Assembly (NCBI RefSeq): GCF_003034845.1
Contig: NZ_PZKC01000015.1
Span: 1-50,040 of the forward strand
DNA: 50,040 bases
Direction: 5' to 3'
From: Pseudothauera lacus
Lineage (GTDB): Bacteria; Pseudomonadota; Gammaproteobacteria; Burkholderiales; Rhodocyclaceae
Position 1 is the first letter of the stretch. Every line of letters begins with the position of its first letter. A program made the translations under genes and the position numbers. Below, piece after piece: positions 5,754 through 16,187 of this stretch. The notes under the pieces are model-generated. The model had not been told where the DNA came from. It was given only the letters and a program-made list of their open reading frames with translations, and ran no database searches.

Positions 5754-6089
5754 TCAGCGCGCCCGCTGTTGCGAAACGTCCTGCGCTATACGCTTTAGCT
5801 CGCGTTCATGTTCCTCATACTCACCCAAGTGGGCGCGCATCAGGCTTTTCCAGAGTTTTCCGTGGTTGGGAACAGAGAAATGGAGCAGCTCGTGGACGAT
5901 CACGTAGTCCCAAAGATCGGGTTTCAGGGCGGGCAGTTCGTCGCTGAAATTCAAATGGCCCGATGTCGAACACGAAGCCCATTTGTTGCGCATCGGCCGC
6001 ACACCCAGCCAGACAATCTTTACTTCCAGCTTGCCGGCCCAGTGCCGGACGCGCTGTTTGAACCGGTCCTTGTGATCGATGGCCGTCAT
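5754..6089 (-). CDS. YgjP-type zinc metallopeptidase (DUF45), short
   Basis: A 111-residue protein with the YgjP/DUF45 signature: MRNKWASCS followed by GHLNF, then the zinc motif HELLH at 66-70 and a third-ligand region NHGKLW at 75-80. I chose ATG at 6089 because it lies 4 nt after the hsdR stop, which implies translational coupling. An ATG at 6134 would overlap hsdR by 41 nt. Full YgjP proteins are about twice as long, so this is a minimal or N-terminally reduced form. Small M48/YgjP peptidases are common riders at the 3' end of type I restriction operons; their role there is not established. Confidence 0.8.
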   Translation of the reverse strand: MTAIDHKDRFKQRVRHWAGKLEVKIVWLGVRPMRNKWASCSTSGHLNFSDELPALKPDLWDYVIVHELLHFSVPNHGKLWKSLMRAHLGEYEEHERELKRIAQDVSQQRAR

Positions 6090-6093
6090 CGCG

Positions 6094-8106
6094 CTAAATC
6101 CGGTCCGCCTTTTCCAGCAGCGTAAACAGCTCATCCACCAGCGCCGTCACCCGGTCCAGGTCCTCCGTTTCGGCGAAGATGGCGAAGGTGACTTTCTTGC
6201 GGAGTTCACGGAGTTCGTTCTCGCTGCGCTTCCAGTTCGGGAACTCGGTGAAGGCGTGGCGAATCTTGCGGCTGACCACCTCGGCGTTCTCAATCTTCGC
6301 GTCCAGCAGGCTGCGGTAGACAAAATACGTCAGGCCATCGAAAGACTTTTCGGCCTGTTCCTTCTTCCGCGTTTCGTTGCCTTCCACTTCTCGCAGCAAT
6401 TCGGCCAGGGCCTCGGCCGTGCTGGTCTGGCGCTGCTCGAAGCTCTCCTGCACCGCCCGCGCGCGTTCCGCCATGGCGATGAGCCAAGGGTCACCGCTGC
6501 CTTCCTCAGCCAGCTTTTCAATGCTCTTGATCAGGTTGATGACCTTGGTGCCATCCCCGCCGGGCTTGTTCTTGATCAGCTCGATGGTATTGCCGTCGAT
6601 CGCGACGATCTCGCCCAGACCGCCCACGCCATAACTGCCGACCTGCTCCTGCACCAGATGGTGGGTCTTGGCCTGGAACTCGCGGTCCACCATCACGGTG
6701 CGGGTGTAGGCCTTGCGGACGACCTGATAGATCGCCGACAAGGTGCCATAGTCATCCATGAACGGGCGCAGGAAGGCATCGGGCGAGATGATCTCGTAGA
6801 GCATCTCGATCTCTTTGTATTCCTTGAAGAACGCCTTGCGCCGCTCGGGGTCGCGGAAGTGCTCGATGAGCGTGTCCACATCCTTGTCGTTGAAGTTGCG
6901 CTCGATCAGGCCGAGGTAGTCCGGGGCCCTGGACTCCATCTTGTTCTTGAACAGCACCTTGAGCAGCTTCAGATCCTTGACGATGGCGTTGATCTCGTCG
7001 CTGTCGAAGGCCAGCGCCTTTTCCAGCTTGTCGAAGATGCCGACAAAATCCAGCACGAAGCCATGCGGCTTCACCATCTCCTGCGCCTCGTTCTCGTAGG
7101 GGCGATTCACCCGGGCGATAGCCTGCAGCAGCGTGTGGTCGCGCATCGGCTTGTCGAGATACATGGCGTAGAGCACCGGCGCATCGAAACCGGTGAGCAG
7201 CTTCTCGGTGACGATCAGGATCTTCGGCATCTGGTCGAGCTTGCCGAAGCTCTTGCGAATCTGCCGTTCCCTCTTCGGGTCGAGGTGGAATTCCTTCAAG
7301 AGCTTGGAATCGTTGTTGCTGCCGGTGTAGACCACTTCGGAATACTCCGGTGGCAAGAACTGGTCGAGCGCATGTTTGTAATGGGCGCAGGTCTCGCGGT
7401 CGACGCCGACCAGGAAGGCCTTGTAGCCCAGCGGCTCGACGTTCTGGCGGTAGTGCTCGGCGACGAATTGCGCCACTTGCTGAATCCGCTCCTTGCCCTT
7501 GAGGAAGTTCTTCAGGTTCACCGCCCGTTCGAGAATCTTGTTCAGCTCCTCGATGTCGGCCACGCCTTCGGCCTCGGCCAGCGACAGGAACTCCTTGTCC
7601 AGGGTCTCGTGCGGCACCAGCATTTCGTTGGGGGCAAGCTGGTAGTAGAGCGGCAGCGTGGTGCCGTCCTCGATGCTGTCGGCGATGGAATACTTGTGCA
7701 GGTAGCCCTGGTCGTCCTCGCAGCCGAAGGTCTTGAAGGTGCCCTTGCCGTACACCGTCTTGTCCACCGGCGTGCCGGTGAAGCCGAGGAAGCTCGCGTT
7801 CGGCAGGCCGGCCATGAGGAAGTTGCCAAGGTCGCCGCCGGTGGTGCGGTGGGCCTCGTCGATCAGCACGTAGATGTTTGCGCGCGTGTTCAAGTCGGCC
7901 GGCATGTCGCGGAACTTGTGGATCATCGTCACGATGATGCCCCGGTATCCATGGAGGTGAGAACCAACGAGGGCACGGATGCGTGAACCCGTGCCTGCAC
8001 AGGCGTTTCGGCCAAATGCGAAAAAGGCCAGAGCAACGTCTGGCCTTGATGTCTTGGTGGCGGACGGTTGACCAGGTGCAGACTGGCCTCCCGAGCTTAT
8101 GAGCAC
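6094..8106 (-). pseudogene. hsdR: Type I restriction subunit HsdR, 5'-truncated
   Basis: The frame encodes the C-terminal two thirds of an HsdR motor subunit. Homology starts abruptly near residue 56 (about nt 7941) at GIIVTMIHKF, just before the Walker B box DEAH (83-86). The motif-III-like FTGTP (109-113), later helicase motifs (VTEKLLTGFDAP, QAIARVNRP) and the long C-terminal helical region follow. The N-terminal PD-(D/E)xK nuclease domain and the Walker A ATP-binding motif, which should occupy some 300-400 further residues, are absent from the whole window. The first 55 residues (GTG at 8106) read through a junction sequence with a hairpin and do not look like HsdR. I therefore infer a non-functional restriction subunit, though a truncated protein could still be made. 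Confidence 0.85.
8021..8045 (-). terminator. Rho-independent terminator after the SIR2 gene
   Basis: On the minus strand a 7-bp GC-rich stem GGCCAGA/TCTGGCC (8026-8045) is followed by five T (complement of 8021-8025). It lies about 100 bp downstream of the SIR2 stop and inside the chimeric 5' end of the hsdR frame. It would therefore end SIR2 transcripts before the hsdR remnant. Confidence 0.65.
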
Positions 8107-8140
8107 TGGTGCGGGTTACTGCGGGGTGCTGCAAACAACA

Positions 8141-11100
8141 TCAAATTCCGCGTCTTCGGGAATACTCGCGCAGTCGCAAGTAACGGGCATCCTGCGCAAG
8201 GTTTGGCGCGGCCTGAACGATTTGATCCAGGCATTGCCCCAACTCCCGAGGCCCCCACTGTTGGTCGGCAATCACGGCATTCAGCAGGATCAGTGCATCC
8301 GCTGGATATCTGCTGCACAAACCCGATTCGTGTAGCAGATGTACGACATAGTGCGGGTGTTCAATCGGTTGCAGCCAGTCCTGCACCGCAGCCAAGGCAG
8401 CCGGGAATTCACCCCGGGCGGCAATTACCATACGAGTCAAAGACTCGGCGATTCGTCGGGTGGCCAAGTCGCGGGATTTTGGCCAGATCTGTTGCCAGAA
8501 CGGTTGGGCGCGGTTATTCCAGTAGTCCTCACGCTGATCGGCTGCGCCTTCCAGTGCTTGGGAGAGTGCCTGCGCGGATTCCTCCAACCCTTCTTGTGGA
8601 AGCGCGCCAATTGCAGATCGGAATTCCTCTACGGAGAATCCCTCGGTCGGGCCCAATGCTGCGTAGGTGAGGAAGGTCGCGAATTGCTGGCGGTGCTCGC
8701 CAAGATCGGCATAGTGCTTTGCACTGTCCAGAAACTGTGACTTGAAGGCTGTCAGCAATGGCTGGTACAAGCGCGGCGACCAGAGGAATCCTTCCCACAC
8801 GGCCTTGGCTTCAACGGGATTGCTCCAGCCGAACAACGGCAGCAGGTGCTGCTCGGTCCAAGGGCGATCCACACGGAAAAATGCGATCAGCCGAGACCCC
8901 ATCAGCACCCGACCGTGGCGGAATCGATCTACCTGCACGTCGCACAGTGTGGTGAAGATGGGCTTCAATTCAGCAGGAAGCAGATCGTTGTCGTTCGGGT
9001 TCTGCTTGAACCACAAGTTGATCAGTGCCTGTGTGGCGTGTCCGATGGGATGATTGATTGCCGAGCCGACAGGGTCGTAGGTTTCGACGCCGTTTCGAAT
9101 AATGCGAGAACCTGAGCCTGCCTCTAGCGGCAAGGCCAGAACACGGCGGCACAGGTTCAGCAGGATGTCCTCATGGCGGCTGATAGCCTTGGAGGCTGCC
9201 TCCATCCACCAAGTCACGGCGTGATCAATTTCCAGCAGCACAGCATCCGGCATGGTCTGTACCAGCGGTGCGGCGTACCGCCAGGATCGCAACACCATTC
9301 CTTCTTCGGCCCATGCCTGCAGAGCTTCGCGCCATCGGCCAGCGGGCCACACGCCATCTCGTGCGAGATCACCTAGCGCGGACAAGCTGTGAAAGAAACG
9401 AGTGCGGCAAACGTCGCGCCACGTGTCTTCGTAGAAAGGTCGCCGCTCCGGTGTAGGCTTGGTGAGCCATTGCACAAGCTCCTGCCGTTTGCGGGGAGCA
9501 ATGTCGACATCCCGGCTGTCCTCGTAATCCGGATCACCGGTGCCGCTCATCCAGTGTGAGAACTCGTCACGCTCGTTGGTCGCCAACTGCCATTGCGGGT
9601 AGGCAGTAGATATTTCCGCCAAGCGTGCCGCCGCAGACGCACCCAAAACGAGGCCCGATGTGTTGAGCTTGGCCAGATGCAGCCAGACGGTACGGGCCAC
9701 CAAGTCTTGCCAATGTTCTGCTTCCAAGTCGTCCCGGTACATCTCTCGCGGCGGGCCTGCCAAAATGGCCGCCTCCAGGCTTTGCTCTGCGACTCCTGCC
9801 AAATGCTGTCCCTGCAGGACCAACAGCCTGAATACCTCCCGCCCGGTATCTGTGGACCACAGCCACCACGCGTCGTCGGCCAGCAACCAATCCACCCACT
9901 GCTCGGGCTGGATGCAATCGTCGTGGCTCGCGGCAAACAGGGCCAGACGTTTAAAGGTGGGGTAAGGCAACTCGAACCAGTTCTGCGCGATGCGTGTTGC
10001 ACGCGCACTGTCGTTGACACGAATCGCCAGCCAGGCATCGCGCAGCAATTCGATCAGGCTACTCCAGTCGCGGAAACCCCGGTTCTGCCAGTGGGGCGTG
10101 ATGGATGGCAGATCCCAATGCGAGCGGTCGCTACGGTCGTCGGCCTCGCCCAATTCGCGCAGCAGGTCCAGTGCATCACGCAACAACTGCTGGAAATCTT
10201 CCAACAGATGCGGCAAAGCAGATTTCCATGGCTCGTCGGCAAGGTCGCACAGGGTTGAATGCACGTGATCGGCGGCCAGCGCGAGCTCCCAGTCCACCAA
10301 TTGCTTGATCCGCGCGGGCTCGTCAGCGCTGCTCGAATCATCGTCGCCCCAGCGAAACGGCTTCTTCAAGACTACCTTCGGGGCAAGCAACTCCCGCAAT
10401 TCCAGACGCAATGTGGCGGTCAGTCCTTCGCGCTTGAGACGACCTTGCCAGCGATATAAGTCGGGATCACGCCATGGCGATTTCACCCGGCCACAGAGCA
10501 GTAGACGCCACAAGGTGCGCATCAGTGGGCCAGGAATGGCCTTGGGTGCGTGTAAGCGGATTTCATCGAGCTCGGAGGTTTTTCCTTCGCGTTCCAGTGA
10601 AGCAAATTGATCCAGCTCGTGTTCGATCAGCCACGGCCAACGGTCGTGCAACTGCCCCCCGCGTTCTGCGATCCAGACGACTAGTCTGGGGTCATCCAGG
10701 TGGCGCACCAGCCAGCGGGCCAGATGGAACATCACGTCATCCCATTGAGTTTCGGGGCTCACTCCGGAAACCAATCGCATTGGCTGCGCGCGGTCGTAAG
10801 GGGCAGGTCTACGAATCAGACTGAAGCGGAGATTGCCATCAATCTTTTTGCGTGCAGGAACATCAAAACGTGCCAGATCACTGTAACGATAGCGTTCGTC
10901 AGAAAATGCGTCCAACAACCAATCCAGCGACGGAGCAGGACTGCAATCGGCAAAGCGTTTAGCCGGCAAGCCCGCTTGATCTGACAATGCCCACAGCATC
11001 CTTCCTACAAAGTCGTTTTGTGGCTTGCTTTCCTTGGGTAGGCGATGCGCATAGCGTGCGACAAGGCGTTCTTTGCCACCAACTCCATCGCGATACACGG

Positions 11101-11941
11101 ACGCCCAAACGTGCAGGGTCCGGTGCAGGCTCCGATGAAAGGCTGCATCGTCGTACAAGATAGGACTTACATGCTTATCCTTCCATGCCTGTAATGCAGA
11201 CTCCGCCTTACCGGTTTCGTAAGATGCGAAGGCGAACATTTTCTGTGCCCCATCCAGCGCATGGGCCGCAGTCATGTATCTCAACACAGGGTCGTCGATG
11301 CTGTATCCAACGAAACACAGCGTGTAGTCCCGAAATAAGCCAGCGACAAATCGAGCCGCCCAGCCTTGGGTCAAGTATGCCTGACCAAAATCTCCATCTG
11401 ACAAGACGAGCTGATCGAGGTCATCCGCCGATGGTTGGACAGGCATTCTCCCGTGCAGATGCACAACACCATCCCAGCGCAGGCGGGTCGGTGGATCGTG
11501 ATAAACGGTCGGGGCTGGCAAGCGATAGCAGCTTGCCGCATCTTCGAACAAGGTATCGAAATTTGTTGTTACCAGCTTGAGACCATCGTCACGAGACCTA
11601 CCGAGAGTCAGCAATGCGAAATGGGTTGTCAGTGCGCGCCGCTTGGTCAGATCAGCAGTGAGTATGGAAGGCAGCCCTCGACGAGTGGTCGTCCGTCCCC
11701 CTTGAATCCGCCGCTCATAGTGGCCAATCGCGCGATCAAATTGGCTTTGCTCGATCAAATCACCTTCAACTCTATCCGCCGGTTCTCCAGCTTGCTGGAA
11801 CAATCTCTGTACCAAGCCGCCAAAGTCTGGCAACCCTGCAGGACGTGAAATGCCTGCCCCACAGAAAAACACCAAGCGACCTTCCTCGTGCGCTTGCAAG
11901 AGCGCATCCGGAATGTCGGGGCCGTTGGTGACGAACTGCAC
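8141..11941 (-). CDS. Giant SIR2-domain protein, probable anti-phage NADase
   Basis: A 1266-residue protein with an N-terminal SIR2 fold: GAGISRPAGLPDF at 28-40, TTNFDTLFE with N127 and D129, and HLHG with H161. These positions correspond to NAD-binding and catalytic residues of SIR2-type NADases. The remaining thousand residues are helical, Trp-rich and unrecognised, as in the defence-associated sirtuins (DSR1/DSR2 type), which deplete NAD+ on phage infection. The DSR-like assignment is inference from architecture and context. The start is GTG at 11941, with AGAAGG upstream; the frame is open back only to the RhuM stop 57 nt away and contains no ATG. Sampled lines are 55-60 percent G+C, clearly below the flanking genome, which suggests acquisition. 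It occupies the place where hsdS and the 5' half of hsdR would be expected. Confidence 0.82.
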   Translation of the reverse strand: MQFVTNGPDIPDALLQAHEEGRLVFFCGAGISRPAGLPDFGGLVQRLFQQAGEPADRVEGDLIEQSQFDRAIGHYERRIQGGRTTTRRGLPSILTADLTKRRALTTHFALLTLGRSRDDGLKLVTTNFDTLFEDAASCYRLPAPTVYHDPPTRLRWDGVVHLHGRMPVQPSADDLDQLVLSDGDFGQAYLTQGWAARFVAGLFRDYTLCFVGYSIDDPVLRYMTAAHALDGAQKMFAFASYETGKAESALQAWKDKHVSPILYDDAAFHRSLHRTLHVWASVYRDGVGGKERLVARYAHRLPKESKPQNDFVGRMLWALSDQAGLPAKRFADCSPAPSLDWLLDAFSDERYRYSDLARFDVPARKKIDGNLRFSLIRRPAPYDRAQPMRLVSGVSPETQWDDVMFHLARWLVRHLDDPRLVVWIAERGGQLHDRWPWLIEHELDQFASLEREGKTSELDEIRLHAPKAIPGPLMRTLWRLLLCGRVKSPWRDPDLYRWQGRLKREGLTATLRLELRELLAPKVVLKKPFRWGDDDSSSADEPARIKQLVDWELALAADHVHSTLCDLADEPWKSALPHLLEDFQQLLRDALDLLRELGEADDRSDRSHWDLPSITPHWQNRGFRDWSSLIELLRDAWLAIRVNDSARATRIAQNWFELPYPTFKRLALFAASHDDCIQPEQWVDWLLADDAWWLWSTDTGREVFRLLVLQGQHLAGVAEQSLEAAILAGPPREMYRDDLEAEHWQDLVARTVWLHLAKLNTSGLVLGASAAARLAEISTAYPQWQLATNERDEFSHWMSGTGDPDYEDSRDVDIAPRKRQELVQWLTKPTPERRPFYEDTWRDVCRTRFFHSLSALGDLARDGVWPAGRWREALQAWAEEGMVLRSWRYAAPLVQTMPDAVLLEIDHAVTWWMEAASKAISRHEDILLNLCRRVLALPLEAGSGSRIIRNGVETYDPVGSAINHPIGHATQALINLWFKQNPNDNDLLPAELKPIFTTLCDVQVDRFRHGRVLMGSRLIAFFRVDRPWTEQHLLPLFGWSNPVEAKAVWEGFLWSPRLYQPLLTAFKSQFLDSAKHYADLGEHRQQFATFLTYAALGPTEGFSVEEFRSAIGALPQEGLEESAQALSQALEGAADQREDYWNNRAQPFWQQIWPKSRDLATRRIAESLTRMVIAARGEFPAALAAVQDWLQPIEHPHYVVHLLHESGLCSRYPADALILLNAVIADQQWGPRELGQCLDQIVQAAPNLAQDARYLRLREYSRRRGI

Positions 11942-11998
11942 AGTCAGCGCGCCTTCTGAGAGACACGCAAGGTGCGAGGATTCGCTGTGTGAACTTGA

Positions 11999-13054
11999 TT
12001 ACGCATCGTCATTCCCCTGCTTATTGCCAGACTCGATTTGTTTCAGCAGCCGGTCGAAGTCGCTTTCAAACAAGCGATCCTGGACGATGCGGTATTTCTC
12101 GAACTCGGATTCGGCGTGGGCTTTGGCGATTTCTGCGGTGACTTTGCCGGCGTCCTGCAGGATTTCCCGGTCGGTGGCTTCGATGAAGCGGTTGAGGCGT
12201 GTTTCCCAGTCCTGCATGGTCATGGGGATGTGCCGCTGGGCCATGTCTTCGGCGACATCGAGGTAGGCGTTCACGAGGCGGGAGAGCTGCGCCATTTCCG
12301 GTTCGGTGAGATAGTTCTTGTCGACGCTGACATCGAATTTCTGGATTTTTCCATGGGGCGCGTCTTTCCATGTGGTCAGGCCCATGTGCTGTTTCCCGGC
12401 ATCGGCCCGGTCCACGATGACCTCGGCGGCGGTGTGGCCGTGGATGGCCCAGTGGAGCTTGTTCTGCACGGTGGCGAAGAAGCGCTGGGTGGCGGTGGCG
12501 CTGCGGTCGTAGTCGATGGCGGTGGCGTAGATGTCGGTGATCTTCTGGTAGAACTTGCGCTCGCTGAGGCGGATTTCGCGGACGCGCTGGAGTTGTTCTT
12601 CGAAGTACTGTTTGGTCAGGACGGTGCCGCCGGCCTTGAGGCGTTCGTCGTCCATCGCGAAGCCCTTGATGGTGAACTCCTTGACCACGGTGGTCGCCCA
12701 TTTGCGGAACTGGACGGCCCGCTCGGAGTTGACCTTGTAGCCGACGGCGATGATGGCGGAGAGGTTGTAGTGGCCGGTGTCGTAGGTTTTGCCGTCGGCG
12801 GCAGTTATTCGAAATTTTCGAATAACTGAATCCTCCGTGAGTTCGTTGTCGGCGAAGAGGGTTTTGAGGTGGTAGTTGATGGTGGGGGTCTTCACGTCGT
12901 AGAGGACGCCCATCTTTTTTTGAGACAGCCAGATGTCCTCGTCGGCATAAACCGCCTCGACGCCACCTTGACCCTGCGCGGCGACGAAGGTGAGGTATTC
13001 CACCGCGGAGGAACGCGTGATGGTGGTTTCCTTGTTGTCGGGCTTCTTTTTCAT
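11999..13054 (-). CDS. RhuM family (virulence RhuM) protein
   Basis: A 351-residue protein of the RhuM family. It is recognised by the N-terminal block around WLSQKKMGVLYDV, INYHLKTLF and GKTYDTGHYNLSAIIAVGY, followed by the conserved VQFRKWAT segment. The C-terminal half includes a RAD-AGKQHMGLTTWK region. RhuM proteins often travel with type I methyltransferase genes and have been linked to toxin or defence functions, but the activity is unproven. Its ATG overlaps the TGA of the upstream ATPase-like gene (ATGA), so the two are translationally coupled. It is followed after 57 nt by the SIR2 gene. Confidence 0.85.
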   Translation of the reverse strand: MKKKPDNKETTITRSSAVEYLTFVAAQGQGGVEAVYADEDIWLSQKKMGVLYDVKTPTINYHLKTLFADNELTEDSVIRKFRITAADGKTYDTGHYNLSAIIAVGYKVNSERAVQFRKWATTVVKEFTIKGFAMDDERLKAGGTVLTKQYFEEQLQRVREIRLSERKFYQKITDIYATAIDYDRSATATQRFFATVQNKLHWAIHGHTAAEVIVDRADAGKQHMGLTTWKDAPHGKIQKFDVSVDKNYLTEPEMAQLSRLVNAYLDVAEDMAQRHIPMTMQDWETRLNRFIEATDREILQDAGKVTAEIAKAHAESEFEKYRIVQDRLFESDFDRLLKQIESGNKQGNDDA

Positions 13055-14619
13055 GTGTTGCCCCCTGGCTTTTCCAACTCCACCAGCAATGCCTGGCCCT
13101 TGGCGGTGAGCCGGTATTTCTGGAGGCGACTGCTGGGCTTTTCGGGGATGGTGGGCTCGATGAGGCCGCCTTCCACCATGCGCTTGATCTGCTTATGGAG
13201 TTCGCCGGAGACCGTTTTGTGACCGAGGATCGGCGCAATGACGGCTTTGCCGAGGGGCTGTGGTCGGATGGCCAGCATGACTTTGGCGGCCAAGGCCGAC
13301 TCTAGCCGTGACTCTAGCCGTGACTCTAGCCGTGACTCTAGCCGTGACTCTAGCCGTGACTCTAGCTGTCCGTCTGGGTCCTGACCTGCTCCCGACGGGG
13401 TCGCCGAGCCAGTGGCCGGTCTGCGGATCGTCAGGACGAAGGAGCCGCCATCCAGCCGGATTTCGGGTTCCGGGAGACCGGCCTCCCGGCAGCGGTGGAT
13501 CATGTCGCGGATGCCGGTGCCCATGCGCTCGATGTATTTGGTGAGATACATGGGCTCGGCAAGCAGCGGGTTGTGCGGGACGGAGGCGTGCGGGCCGCGC
13601 AGTTTTTCGAGGGTCAGGGTGGGCGGCAGGGAACCAGGGTTCCAGATTTCCAGCCGGTCCTTGAAGAGCATGACCTGCACGCTGGCGTTGCTGGTGTAGT
13701 CGCGATGCACGACGGCGTTGACGATGGCCTCGGCAACAACCTCCTGCGGGATTTCGTATTTCGTGGGCACCTGGGTGCCGTGCTCGCGGGTGCCGACCCA
13801 GAGATCGATTTTGGAGAGCACAAAGTCCTTGGCCTGGTCCACGAGGTCGAAGACCGTGCCCTTGTACACCTGATAGGAAGGGATGGGCTTGGCCACTTCA
13901 TAGCCGTGGAAGTGGGCGCATTTCACCTCGGATGTGATCAGGAAGCGTTGCGGCTGTTTGCCGAACAGCAGGATGGCGGCATGGGTCGGCCGACCCTTGT
14001 CGAGCAGGTTGAGGTGGGCCAGCACCTCATGGGGCGGCGTGTCCTCCGGCAACGGGAAATTGCGCCCCCGGCGGGCCAGCCCAAGAAAGCGGGTGATCTT
14101 GTCCGGGTCCAGGTCGTCGAGCGCGGCGTTTCGGCAGAACGTGGCATCGAAGGGCCCCAAACGGATCAGCTCGCGCTCTTCAAGTATCCGGACCAGGCTG
14201 GCGTAGACGGCGGAGACAAGTTCTTCGGAGGAATTGAAACGCCGCCGAACAAGGTTGTCCCCGACGCTGCGGATCAAGGCGCGCATTTTCGGATGCTTGG
14301 CATCATCGGCCGCACCCTTGACGAAGATCAGGCGGGTCTTGCCCTGCCGGGTGGCCTCGTTCAGTTCGAGGTGGGTGGGCGAGAGGCCGTCCTTGCTTTC
14401 CCAACCGTAGTCGTCTCCAAAGAGACCGAGGTAGAGGTCACAGTTCCGGACTTCATCGAGATAGACGGCATCGGGCCGACGGTCGGAAGAAGGGACGTCG
14501 CGCTCGAAGAGAAACGTCGCGAAGAAACGCCGCAGCAACGGGTCGCCGGAAAGGTATTCGCCCAGCGCCTTGCGCTCGGCGGCAAATTCCTTCTGCACGC
14601 TGCTGATGAAGATCCTCAT
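13051..14619 (-). CDS. DUF4062-AlbA_2-HATPase ATP-binding protein
   Basis: A 522-residue protein. Residues 1 to about 115 form a DUF4062 domain (MRIFISSVQKEF, RNCDLYLGLFGDDYGWE), a TIR/STAND-associated module. The middle resembles AlbA_2-type ATP-dependent DNA-binding proteins (THAAILLFGKQP). The GHKL-like block EAIVNAVVHRDY and GTGIRDMIHRC (HATPase_c_4 type) follows. A stretch of six LES units (RLES repeats) links this to a C-terminal winged-helix-like segment. Start ATG at 14619 overlaps the hsdM stop (ATGA), and its own stop overlaps RhuM, so hsdM, this gene and rhuM form one coupled block. A longer open frame upstream to 15285 is a shadow of hsdM. Confidence 0.85.
   Translation of the reverse strand: MRIFISSVQKEFAAERKALGEYLSGDPLLRRFFATFLFERDVPSSDRRPDAVYLDEVRNCDLYLGLFGDDYGWESKDGLSPTHLELNEATRQGKTRLIFVKGAADDAKHPKMRALIRSVGDNLVRRRFNSSEELVSAVYASLVRILEERELIRLGPFDATFCRNAALDDLDPDKITRFLGLARRGRNFPLPEDTPPHEVLAHLNLLDKGRPTHAAILLFGKQPQRFLITSEVKCAHFHGYEVAKPIPSYQVYKGTVFDLVDQAKDFVLSKIDLWVGTREHGTQVPTKYEIPQEVVAEAIVNAVVHRDYTSNASVQVMLFKDRLEIWNPGSLPPTLTLEKLRGPHASVPHNPLLAEPMYLTKYIERMGTGIRDMIHRCREAGLPEPEIRLDGGSFVLTIRRPATGSATPSGAGQDPDGQLESRLESRLESRLESRLESRLESALAAKVMLAIRPQPLGKAVIAPILGHKTVSGELHKQIKRMVEGGLIEPTIPEKPSSRLQKYRLTAKGQALLVELEKPGGNT
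13298..13369 (-). repeat. 12-bp tandem repeat, six copies, coding RLES units
   Basis: The unit GACTCTAGCCGT is repeated six times in perfect register (starts 13298, 13310, 13322, 13334, 13346, 13358; the last copy has CTGT). On the minus strand it encodes (R/Q)LES repeats in the linker of the DUF4062/HATPase protein. Because the unit is 12 bp, copy-number change would alter linker length without breaking the frame. Each unit contains CTAG, usually a rare tetranucleotide in such genomes. Confidence 0.95.
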
Positions 14620-16187
14620 GCGCCGATTCCGAGTTGTTTGAGAATTCTGCCAAGGGCCTGGTCGGTTTCCTTGGCCTCGGCCTCGATGACCTTGAGCTCC
14701 TCGACGATCTCCGCGATGGGCCGGTAGGTTTGCGCATCGCTGGTGTGGATATAGCGGCTGGGCGAGATGTTGTAGTCGTTCTTCTTCAGCTCGGCGTGAT
14801 CGACGATGCGGCTGAGTTTTTCTTCTTCCTTCCACCCGATGAGGGTGTCGGCAATGCGCTGGATGCCGGCTTCGGGGATGAAGTTCTTGGGGTCGCCCTT
14901 TTCGAAGACCTGCGAGGCATTGACGAGGAAGACCTTGCCCTGGCGCGCCGGCTGCTTGGCCTTGTTGAGGAACAGCACGATGCCCGGCGCGGTGGTGTTG
15001 TAGAAGAGATTTTCGGGCAGGTAGAGGACGCTCTCGATGAGATCGTGGTCGACGAACCACTGGCGGACGGCCTTTTCCTTGTTGGTGCCGGCATTGCCCG
15101 AGCCGCGCGAGGCAGCGCCGGTGTCGAGGACGACGGCGGCGCGGCCGGTGGCGTTCAGGCTGGCGTGGATGTGCTGCACCCAGCCCCAGTCGGCGGAAGA
15201 TTTGCCGGGAAAGCCGGCCCCGGCGGGGAAGCGGTCGAGTTCGTCGTTGTCGTAATCGGCCTCGGTGAACCAGTCCTGGTTCCACATGGGATTGGCGACG
15301 ACGCGGTCGAAGCTGCGGAGCTTGCCCTGCCTGTTGCGGAATTTGGGGTTCTTGAAGGTGTCGCCGATCTCGATCTGGCCTTCCATGTCGTGGATGATCA
15401 TGTTCATGTTGGCCATGGCCCAGGTTTCGGCGGTGTATTCCTGGCCGTAGAGCTTGAGGGGGGCGACGGTGCGTTTCTTGCCCTTGGCCGCCGCTTCCAT
15501 CGCGATCTCACATTTGATCAACAGGCCACCGGAGCCACACGTAGGATCGTAGATTTCCATTCCCGGCTCTGGCTGGAGCACGCGGGACATGATGGAGCCG
15601 ACCTCGGGCGGGGTGTAGAACTCGCCGGCGCTCTGGCCGCCGCCTTCGGCGAACTTGCGGATCAGGTATTCGTAGCTCTTGCCAATGATGTCGGCCTCGA
15701 CGTCGTCGAGCCCGAGGCGCTTGGTGCTGATGGCCTCGATAAGGTTGGAGAGGCGGTCGTCGTCGAGATCGCGCTGGCCGTGGGTGGTGGCGTTGAAGTC
15801 AACGCGGTCGATGATGCCCTGTAGCAGCGGATTCTCCCGGGCGATGGCCCGCATGTGGGTGGTAACGCCTTCGCCGATCTTGTCGGCGAGCTTGCGGATG
15901 ACCGACCACACCGGCTGCTCGGGATCGTCCGGCACGAGCGGAAGGTAGAAGCGGACGAGCTTGTGGTCGGCCCTGGCGAGCTGGAAGGCTCTCTTGCGCG
16001 AACCGACTTCCTCGGCAATGCGGTTCAGTTCATCGTCGAAGACGTCGCACAGGCGCTTGGTGAAGATGAGGGGGAGGATGTAGTCCTTGTATTTCGGCGC
16101 ATCCTTGGCCCCGCGGATGGAACAGGCTGCATCCCAGATCCAGGATTCGAGGGATTTGGCGCTACCGTTATTGCTTGCCATCGGCAT
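14616..16187 (-). CDS. hsdM: Type I DNA methyltransferase subunit HsdM
   Basis: A 523-residue, full-length HsdM. It has the N-terminal helical domain (about 1-170), the EFYTPPEV entry motif (189-196), the SAM-binding motif DPTCGSGG (214-221) and the catalytic NPMW variant of the NPPF/Y motif (299-302). It would methylate adenine when complexed with a specificity subunit. No hsdS is present in the window, so a partner in trans would be needed. ATG at 16187 is preceded by AAAGGG. It heads the minus-strand defence block and is coupled to the next gene by an ATGA overlap. G+C is about 58 percent in a line counted, lower than the flanks. Confidence 0.93.
   Translation of the reverse strand: MPMASNNGSAKSLESWIWDAACSIRGAKDAPKYKDYILPLIFTKRLCDVFDDELNRIAEEVGSRKRAFQLARADHKLVRFYLPLVPDDPEQPVWSVIRKLADKIGEGVTTHMRAIARENPLLQGIIDRVDFNATTHGQRDLDDDRLSNLIEAISTKRLGLDDVEADIIGKSYEYLIRKFAEGGGQSAGEFYTPPEVGSIMSRVLQPEPGMEIYDPTCGSGGLLIKCEIAMEAAAKGKKRTVAPLKLYGQEYTAETWAMANMNMIIHDMEGQIEIGDTFKNPKFRNRQGKLRSFDRVVANPMWNQDWFTEADYDNDELDRFPAGAGFPGKSSADWGWVQHIHASLNATGRAAVVLDTGAASRGSGNAGTNKEKAVRQWFVDHDLIESVLYLPENLFYNTTAPGIVLFLNKAKQPARQGKVFLVNASQVFEKGDPKNFIPEAGIQRIADTLIGWKEEEKLSRIVDHAELKKNDYNISPSRYIHTSDAQTYRPIAEIVEELKVIEAEAKETDQALGRILKQLGIGA

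What the first reader, a model, noticed from the sequence alone, without database searches (positions are those of the whole stretch)
5754..16187. Type I restriction locus rebuilt around a giant SIR2 protein
The minus-strand order is hsdM, DUF4062 ATPase-like, RhuM, SIR2, truncated hsdR, YgjP peptidase. hsdS is absent and hsdR has lost everything before its DEAH box, while hsdM is intact. The SIR2 gene lies exactly where hsdS plus 5' hsdR should be, so one exchange appears to have swapped a restriction core for an NADase-type defence gene. The question is whether the surviving HsdM/DUF4062/RhuM block now serves the SIR2 protein or is merely a relic.
Basis: partly seen in the sequence, partly recalled or inferred. 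Interest (0 to 1): 0.75.

Follow-up and report, generated by a model that had tools for sequence, protein, structure and literature searches.

The report
Dsr1 gene replacing restriction-locus core
A bacterial DNA-restriction gene cluster has had its target-recognition gene and the first third of its cutting gene overwritten by a different, already known, anti-virus gene that probably works alone and may have come from a small mobile island; the leftover restriction genes are probably scars rather than a new machine.

Summary
The minus strand reads hsdM, DUF4062-HATPase, RhuM, SIR2 gene, 5'-truncated hsdR, YgjP; hsdS is absent. The SIR2 gene is a full-length Dsr1 (NF041818, 1951 bits, cut-off 1400), a known single-gene system. 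An intact counterpart exists (L077: hsdM-DUF4062-RhuM-hsdS-hsdR-YgjP). The breaks are sharp: 7947 inside hsdR, and 12067 inside the last 22 codons of RhuM. Of 80 hsdR-relative loci none carries Dsr1, and of 73 assessable none lacks the hsdR 5' part, so this looks like one event, not a stable system. The hsdR remnant shows no relaxed selection (0 nonsynonymous, 8 synonymous private changes): the exchange is recent. Best reading: Dsr1 works alone; the R-M parts are hitchhikers or relics. A 72-bp element and a terminator-like hairpin follow Dsr1. The same element follows ParE, HsdR, Dsr1, Fic, TOTE or RhuM genes in other genomes (17 of 25 copies), with a tRNA or tmRNA gene upstream in 5 of 21 loci. 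This suggests an origin in small islands, in which no tyrosine integrase was found. Dsr1 is itself chimeric: its SIR2 domain and its C-terminal part have different relatives.

The parts
14616..16187 (-). hsdM, intact type I methyltransferase subunit
   Evidence: PF12161 and PF02384; 91-94% aa to nine near relatives; private changes 2 nonsynonymous / 24 synonymous
13051..14619 (-). DUF4062 - HATPase_c_4 accessory gene with an in-frame LESR repeat linker; overlaps hsdM and RhuM by 4 bp
   Evidence: 92-93% aa to L016, L022, L077
11999..13054 (-). RhuM accessory gene; its last ~22 codons (12066-12002) differ from the near relatives and look like those of other RhuM lineages
   Evidence: PF13310; break at 12067; tail resembles L038, L158 and L007 over only 26-36 bp
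7948..12066 (-). incoming block that replaces hsdS and the 5' part of hsdR
   Evidence: break points; intact counterpart L077 7644-9994
8141..11941 (-). dsr1, full length (1266 aa, GTG start); SIR2 domain with N127 and H163 conserved; SIR2 part (1-300) from a different lineage than the C-terminal part
   Evidence: NF041818 1951 bits; PADLOC Dsr1 2198 bits; alignment; GC3 63.6 against 79-89 in four hsd-block genes and acnB
8054..8125 (-). 72-bp element 15 bp after the dsr1 stop; right end of tRNA/tmRNA-associated islands (inferred)
8021..8045 (-). terminator-like hairpin and T run right after the element; would cut the hsdR remnant off from upstream transcription (inferred)
   Evidence: sequence; script; not listed by the consensus scan
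6094..7947 (-). hsdR remnant: starts at about residue 356 of 972 (L009 numbering), keeps the DEAH box, lacks nuclease domain and Walker A
5754..6134 (-). YgjP-like metallopeptidase, usual last gene of this locus type
   Evidence: PF01863; a match in 79 of 80 relative loci

Best explanation
This was an ordinary type I restriction-modification locus (hsdM-DUF4062-RhuM-hsdS-hsdR-ygjP). A recombination brought in a 4.1-kb block that overwrote the end of RhuM, all of hsdS and the first third of hsdR (shown by comparison). On the 5' side the crossover lies inside RhuM, probably by homology with another RhuM gene (inferred); on the 3' side it is sharp, with no evident homology. The block carries a complete dsr1 gene, a 72-bp island-end element and a terminator-like hairpin. 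Dsr1 most likely acts alone: its C-terminal part senses a phage protein and unleashes the N-terminal SIR2 NADase (from the family and by analogy with DSR2, not tested). It probably rides the hsdM-DUF4062-RhuM transcript, since those genes overlap by 4 bp and dsr1 follows after 57 bp (inferred). Restriction is dead: no specificity subunit, no nuclease domain, no Walker A. HsdM without HsdS has no target, and the two other type I systems of this genome have HsdM only 27 and 31% identical, so lending is unlikely. HsdM, DUF4062 and RhuM are probably recent leftovers.
For: Intact counterpart L077 with PF01420 in hsdS and HSDR_N in hsdR. Sharp breaks. 0 of 80 relative loci with Dsr1 and 0 of 73 assessable loci without the hsdR 5' part. 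Full-length Dsr1 with N127/H163 invariant in 8 aligned proteins. No annotated hsd gene in operon with Dsr1 in 8 of 8 annotated records. Foreign GC3. No hsdS or HSDR_N match elsewhere on C7. hsdR remnant private changes 0 nonsynonymous / 8 synonymous, so loss is recent. Element and hairpin behind Dsr1. HsdM identity to the C34 and C2 systems 27% and 31%. That DSR1 inhibits phage through NADase activity is from passages of PMC10952713.
Against: No donor with RhuM next to dsr1 was found. The RhuM tail match is short (26-36 bp). In G252 an apparently intact related hsd locus with YgjP is followed directly by Dsr1 (L115), so some association of Dsr1 with this locus type exists. The consensus scan found no promoter in the region (0, shuffles 2.7) and did not list the hairpin. 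No transcript or activity data. The lack of relaxed selection is also what a still-used hsdM, RhuM or hsdR fragment would show.
Confidence: 0.7

Rival explanations
1. Two-step origin: Dsr1 first entered the known insertion site between hsdS and hsdR of an intact locus, and later deletions removed hsdS and the 5' part of hsdR.
For: Defence genes embedded between hsdS and hsdR are described (PMC12255303 passages); L009 has a HipA gene there.
Against: RhuM ends in a tail unlike its near relatives that begins inside the gene, which fits a crossover in RhuM better than a deletion reaching to it; no intermediate was found in 80 loci.
Confidence: 0.25
2. A new joint system: HsdM, DUF4062 and RhuM now regulate or target Dsr1, for example methylation-gated NADase activation.
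For: Tight spacing (4-bp overlaps, then 57 bp) suggests co-transcription; hsdM shows purifying selection (2 nonsynonymous / 24 synonymous private changes); Dsr1 lies next to a related hsd locus in G252.
Against: Arrangement absent from 80 relative loci; no annotated hsd gene in operon with Dsr1 in 8 of 8 annotated records; HsdM has no specificity subunit; selection was measured on a branch that may be mostly older than the exchange.
Confidence: 0.07
3. Assembly chimera joining an island fragment to an hsd locus.
For: No second genome with these junctions: 2 of 6 genomes of the genus have Dsr1, own and G004 at 50% identity; raw reads were not available.
Against: Dsr1 followed closely by the element recurs in G205 and G1016; the junctions lie inside one contig of a 41-contig assembly, 99.99% complete, 0.16% contaminated.
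Confidence: 0.05
4. PrrC-like guard: the SIR2 protein is kept next to hsd genes to punish phage inhibition of restriction.
For: PrrC is such a guard embedded in a type IC locus (PMC12707154 passage).
Against: There is no functioning restriction enzyme left at this locus to guard.
Confidence: 0.02

Closest known systems
Dsr1, defence-associated sirtuin 1 (NF041818)
   Same: Full length, above the curated cut-off, N127/H163 and GAGIS motif conserved
   Different: In windows of 75 residues the SIR2 part (1-300) is 37-65% identical to seven other copies, while from residue 376 on it is 76-92% identical to the Shewanella copy: a chimeric member
Type I R-M locus with accessory genes and YgjP/M48 peptidase, e.g. 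L077, and the RRDM island with DarTG2 between hsdS and hsdR (PMC12255303, passages seen)
   Same: hsdM, accessory defence gene, hsdR, metallopeptidase in order
   Different: hsdS and the first third of hsdR are gone, so the inserted gene replaces rather than joins the R-M system
PrrC/RloC anticodon nucleases linked to type I loci (PMC12707154, passages seen)
   Same: Antiviral effector placed within an hsd locus
   Different: No active restriction enzyme left to guard; different chemistry
Islands integrated at tRNA and tmRNA genes (PMC10121019, passages seen)
   Same: Element ends like a tRNA/tmRNA 3' end (by eye), is followed by a perfect-stem terminator in 5 of 21 copies, and a tRNA or tmRNA gene lies upstream in 5 of 21 loci
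   Different: No tyrosine integrase (PF00589) between the tRNA/tmRNA gene and the element in these 5 loci; cargo as small as one gene

Membership tests
Type I restriction-modification system | HsdM with HsdM_N and N6_Mtase domains | tested here: met
Type I restriction-modification system | HsdS specificity subunit | tested here: not met
   No PF01420 match on contig C7 at E 0.01
Type I restriction-modification system | HsdR with nuclease domain and full motor | tested here: not met
   No PF04313 match on C7 at E 0.01; homology starts at about residue 356
Dsr1 | Full-length match over the curated cut-off | tested here: met
   1951.1 bits against 1400, residues 2-1262
Dsr1 | SIR2 active-site residues | tested here: met
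   N127 and H163 invariant in 8 aligned proteins; equated by motif, from recall, with DSR2 N133/H171, the catalytic mutant named in a PMC10973363 passage
Dsr1 | Works as a single gene | tested here: inconclusive
   8 of 8 annotated records have no annotated hsd gene in operon with it; activity not tested
Dsr1 | NADase activity and phage protection | not testable with these tools
   needs bench work
RRDM-type island (defence gene embedded between hsdS and hsdR) | Intact hsdS and hsdR on either side of the insert | tested here: not met
PrrC-type guard | Functional cognate type I enzyme | tested here: not met
Integron gene cassette (for the 72-bp element) | attC-like folding of one strand | tested here: not met
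   z-scores +0.8 and +1.6, no stable hairpin
Integron gene cassette (for the 72-bp element) | Integron integrase in the genome | not tested
   only the general PF00589 family was searched

The most novel reading that the evidence does not exclude
The 72-bp element behind Dsr1 marks a widespread, undescribed class of very small integrated islands with no integrase of their own at tRNA and tmRNA genes. Each carries a toxin or defence gene directly before its right end, and they feed new defence genes by recombination into resident restriction loci such as this one.
Probability: 0.4. Interest if true: 0.7.

Novelty: new variant of a known kind. Interest (0 to 1): 0.42.

Why it matters
It catches one defence system overwriting another: a recent replacement of a restriction core by an NADase gene, with an intact counterpart to compare and break points placed to the base. 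It also gives a lead to how defence genes move: a recognisable 72-bp end element behind toxin, restriction and sirtuin genes in a number of genomes. If the element is what it seems, it offers a sequence tag for finding small defence islands that searches based on integrases would miss.

Tried and rejected
Rejected: that the six-gene order is a stable system; that hsdS or the hsdR 5' part was merely moved elsewhere in the genome (only two unlike systems on C2 and C34); that the 72-bp element is a known RNA family (no Rfam match up to E 5 in 7800-8300; none at gathering level in the window), an attC-like hairpin, or coding (its substitutions do not favour third codon positions, read by eye). Searches that led nowhere: the element in phages (22-bp matches in 3 Streptomyces phage records); a 21-base pattern in viral contigs gave 3 contigs, which the element model did not confirm; junction pieces in plasmids gave one Azotobacter record each; promoters, 0 found; solved structures, only distant SIR2 matches. 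The donor of the block was not identified. Residues 1-300 of Dsr1 found no plasmid relative of 60% or more in 61 records. Four partial element matches (L145, L148, L149, L150) were only looked at in 3-kb pieces, without a family search of the neighbouring frames; G376 likewise; weak matches in G024, G059 and G141 were not followed. Dsr1 matches in G221 and G329 were not fetched further. In print: I saw no paper on RhuM within type I loci or on such an element in the listings (one open-licence library; one search lists two papers holding both RhuM and type I restriction-modification, which I did not open).
Full report
Anatomy. Pfam and NCBIfam name them hsdM, DUF4062-HATPase_c_4, RhuM, Dsr1, an hsdR C-terminal part and YgjP. 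The SIR2 gene is not a giant oddity: it matches the Dsr1 equivalog end to end at 1951 bits (cut-off 1400), and PADLOC's Dsr1 profile at 2198 bits. A genome-wide search finds Methylase_S and HSDR_N domains at E 0.01 only on contigs C2 and C34, so the missing pieces were not simply moved within this genome. The HsdM proteins of those two systems are 31% and 27% identical to this one.

Relatives. A scan of 84,980 genomes with the hsdR remnant gave 194 confirmed relatives, of which the best 80 were kept and examined. Dsr1 occurs in 0 of 80. The hsdR N-terminal part aligns nearly whole in 67, in split pieces in 6, is beyond the contig end in 7, and is absent in 0. L077 has hsdM, DUF4062, RhuM, hsdS, hsdR and YgjP in that order at 87-94% protein identity for the shared genes, with PF01420 in hsdS and HSDR_N in hsdR. 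It is the intact counterpart. L016 also has DUF4062-RhuM-hsdS and hsdR, but only the last 101 residues of its hsdM matched.

Break points. blastn to close relatives ends at window 7947 in 20 of 20 loci printed, and an alignment of seven relatives shows the same edge. On the other side, similarity to six loci ends at 12067, inside RhuM; L016 runs to 12054 and L038 to 12042. From 12066 RhuM continues in frame with a tail (ESDFDRLLKQIES) that differs from those of L077 and L009 and resembles, over only 26-36 bp, RhuM genes of L038, L158 and L007. So a 4119-bp block (7948-12066) stands where L077 has 2351 bp.

The incoming gene. Dsr1 has third-position GC of 63.6%, against 79-88% for hsdM, DUF4062, RhuM and the hsdR remnant and 89% for acnB, so it looks like a newcomer. 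It is chimeric: over residues 1-300 it is 41-60% identical to the Shewanella copy in windows of 75 residues, while from 376 on it is 76-92%; for the control pair Shewanella-E. coli PAR the two parts are 87-100% and 69-92%. The best match in hand for residues 1-300 is only 53% (L115), and no plasmid record of 61 reached 60%. N127 and H163 and the GAGIS motif are invariant in eight aligned proteins. In eight annotated plasmid and E. coli records Dsr1 has no annotated hsd gene in operon with it; six of these rest on the incomplete plasmid gene table. One of them, pMTY18781-2, has S, M and a helicase gene of a type I system downstream in the opposite direction. So the neighbourhood may be a recurring landing place even though the replacement was not seen again.

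Relic or partner. In the hsdR remnant the window has 0 nonsynonymous and 8 synonymous private changes against 11 relatives; hsdM has 2 and 24, RhuM 5 and 7, DUF4062 10 and 23, within the range of their relatives apart from a larger synonymous count in hsdM. This shows no decay, so the exchange is recent compared with the divergence of these loci; it does not prove that the parts are used. A terminator-like hairpin at 8045-8021 would separate the hsdR remnant from upstream transcription (sequence). The consensus terminator scan did not list it, probably because it pairs the flanking A and T bases and then counts too few T. The simplest mechanism is a self-sufficient NADase riding the old operon's promoter. 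PMC10952713 (passages) reports that DSR1 inhibits phage without cell death; PMC10973363 (passages) counts DSR1 among single-gene systems.

Where the block came from. Fifteen bases after the Dsr1 stop lies a 72-bp element (8125-8054). It was first seen as a 68-bp match behind a type I hsdR on an Azotobacter plasmid, then behind a Dsr1 gene in G205, behind a three-gene AAA-ATPase operon in G139 and behind a Fic gene on contig C23 of this same genome. A sequence-only model found 22 copies in 19 of 349 genomes of the order, at most two per genome (strict filters, so weak copies can be missed). Adding the three copies from Azotobacter, G139 and G205 makes 25. In 17 of 25, a toxin or defence gene on the same strand ends between 10 bp inside and 57 bp before the element: ParE 6, HsdR 3, Dsr1 3, Fic 2, TOTE helicase 1, RhuM 1, and the last gene of the AAA operon 1. 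Some of these are fragments or rest on indirect naming: the G1016 Dsr1 frame covers only the C-terminal quarter, the G959 Fic is named by 78% DNA identity to the C23 gene with only a 108-residue open frame, and in G139 the gene next to the element has no Pfam match while the AAA gene lies two genes upstream. Of the eight others, one follows an ABC-2 permease, one a decayed ParE-like stretch, two no gene recognised by Pfam, and four are partial matches with no evident gene by eye.

The element ends in CGCCACCA, like a tRNA or tmRNA 3' end. By a strict rule 5 of 21 copies are followed by a perfect-stem terminator against 4 of 1050 random positions in the same loci; more show an imperfect one by eye. 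In 5 of 21 loci a tRNA-Ala (this genome, C23) or tmRNA gene (four genomes) lies upstream on the same strand, 0.5 to 8.7 kb away; in the other 16 none lies within the fetched stretch. A tmRNA gene is normally single-copy (recalled), so four hits are far beyond chance (estimate by hand). No PF00589 integrase lies between the tRNA/tmRNA gene and the element in these five; other recombinases were not searched. I infer that the element is the right end of small islands at tRNA/tmRNA genes. The window itself has no tRNA, so its block would be a copy recombined away from such an island. A RhuM gene precedes the element directly in G816 and lies between tmRNA and element in G720, which makes crossover within RhuM plausible, but a RhuM-Dsr1 donor was not found.

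Known context. Embedding of defence genes between hsdS and hsdR, with a metallopeptidase gene downstream, is described for DarTG2 in enteropathogenic E. coli, and the authors suggest a recombination hotspot (PMC12255303, passages). PrrC is a well-studied embedded guard (PMC12707154, passage). Integration of many defence-bearing elements at tmRNA is described (PMC10121019, passages). The locus is therefore a new variant of a known kind; the element is the less known part.

Noticed in passing
window 8054-8125 and 24 copies elsewhere, e.g. L121 8940-9011: 72-bp element behind toxin/defence genes, ending like a tRNA/tmRNA 3' end, sometimes followed by a terminator; low copy, no PF00589 integrase nearby in five loci checked.
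   Followed up: partly
L121 7379-9011 (own genome contig C23): A 1.5-kb stretch between a tRNA-Ala 3' end and the element holds a Fic gene; G959 has a related Fic-element unit (Fic frame broken) downstream of a tmRNA gene.
   Followed up: partly
window 8141-11941: Dsr1 is chimeric: SIR2 domain and C-terminal part have different nearest lineages, as if the effector domain had been swapped.
   Followed up: partly
window 13051-14619 (about 13308-13375): In-frame LESR tetrapeptide repeats in the DUF4062 protein linker; the number differs between the window, L077, L016 and L022.
   Followed up: no
L118: Three Dsr1-like genes in tandem in one genome (matches 36-44% identical to the window's copy), one in two overlapping pieces.
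   Followed up: no
L016 1768-2070: A relative of the locus where hsdM matches only over its last 101 residues while DUF4062, RhuM, hsdS and hsdR remain: possibly a break at the opposite end.
   Followed up: no
L117 13980-18107: In G335 a Dsr1 gene ends about 150 bp from the 3' end of a tmRNA gene, facing it; the element model found nothing there.
   Followed up: no
L115 4362-16183: Related hsd locus with full hsdR and YgjP, followed directly by a Dsr1 54% identical to the window's.
   Followed up: partly
L008 5001-5421 (Limnohabitans plasmid pTEGF4): A 421-bp stretch 84% identical to the window's Dsr1 C-terminal part, not annotated as Dsr1: probably a fragment.
   Followed up: no
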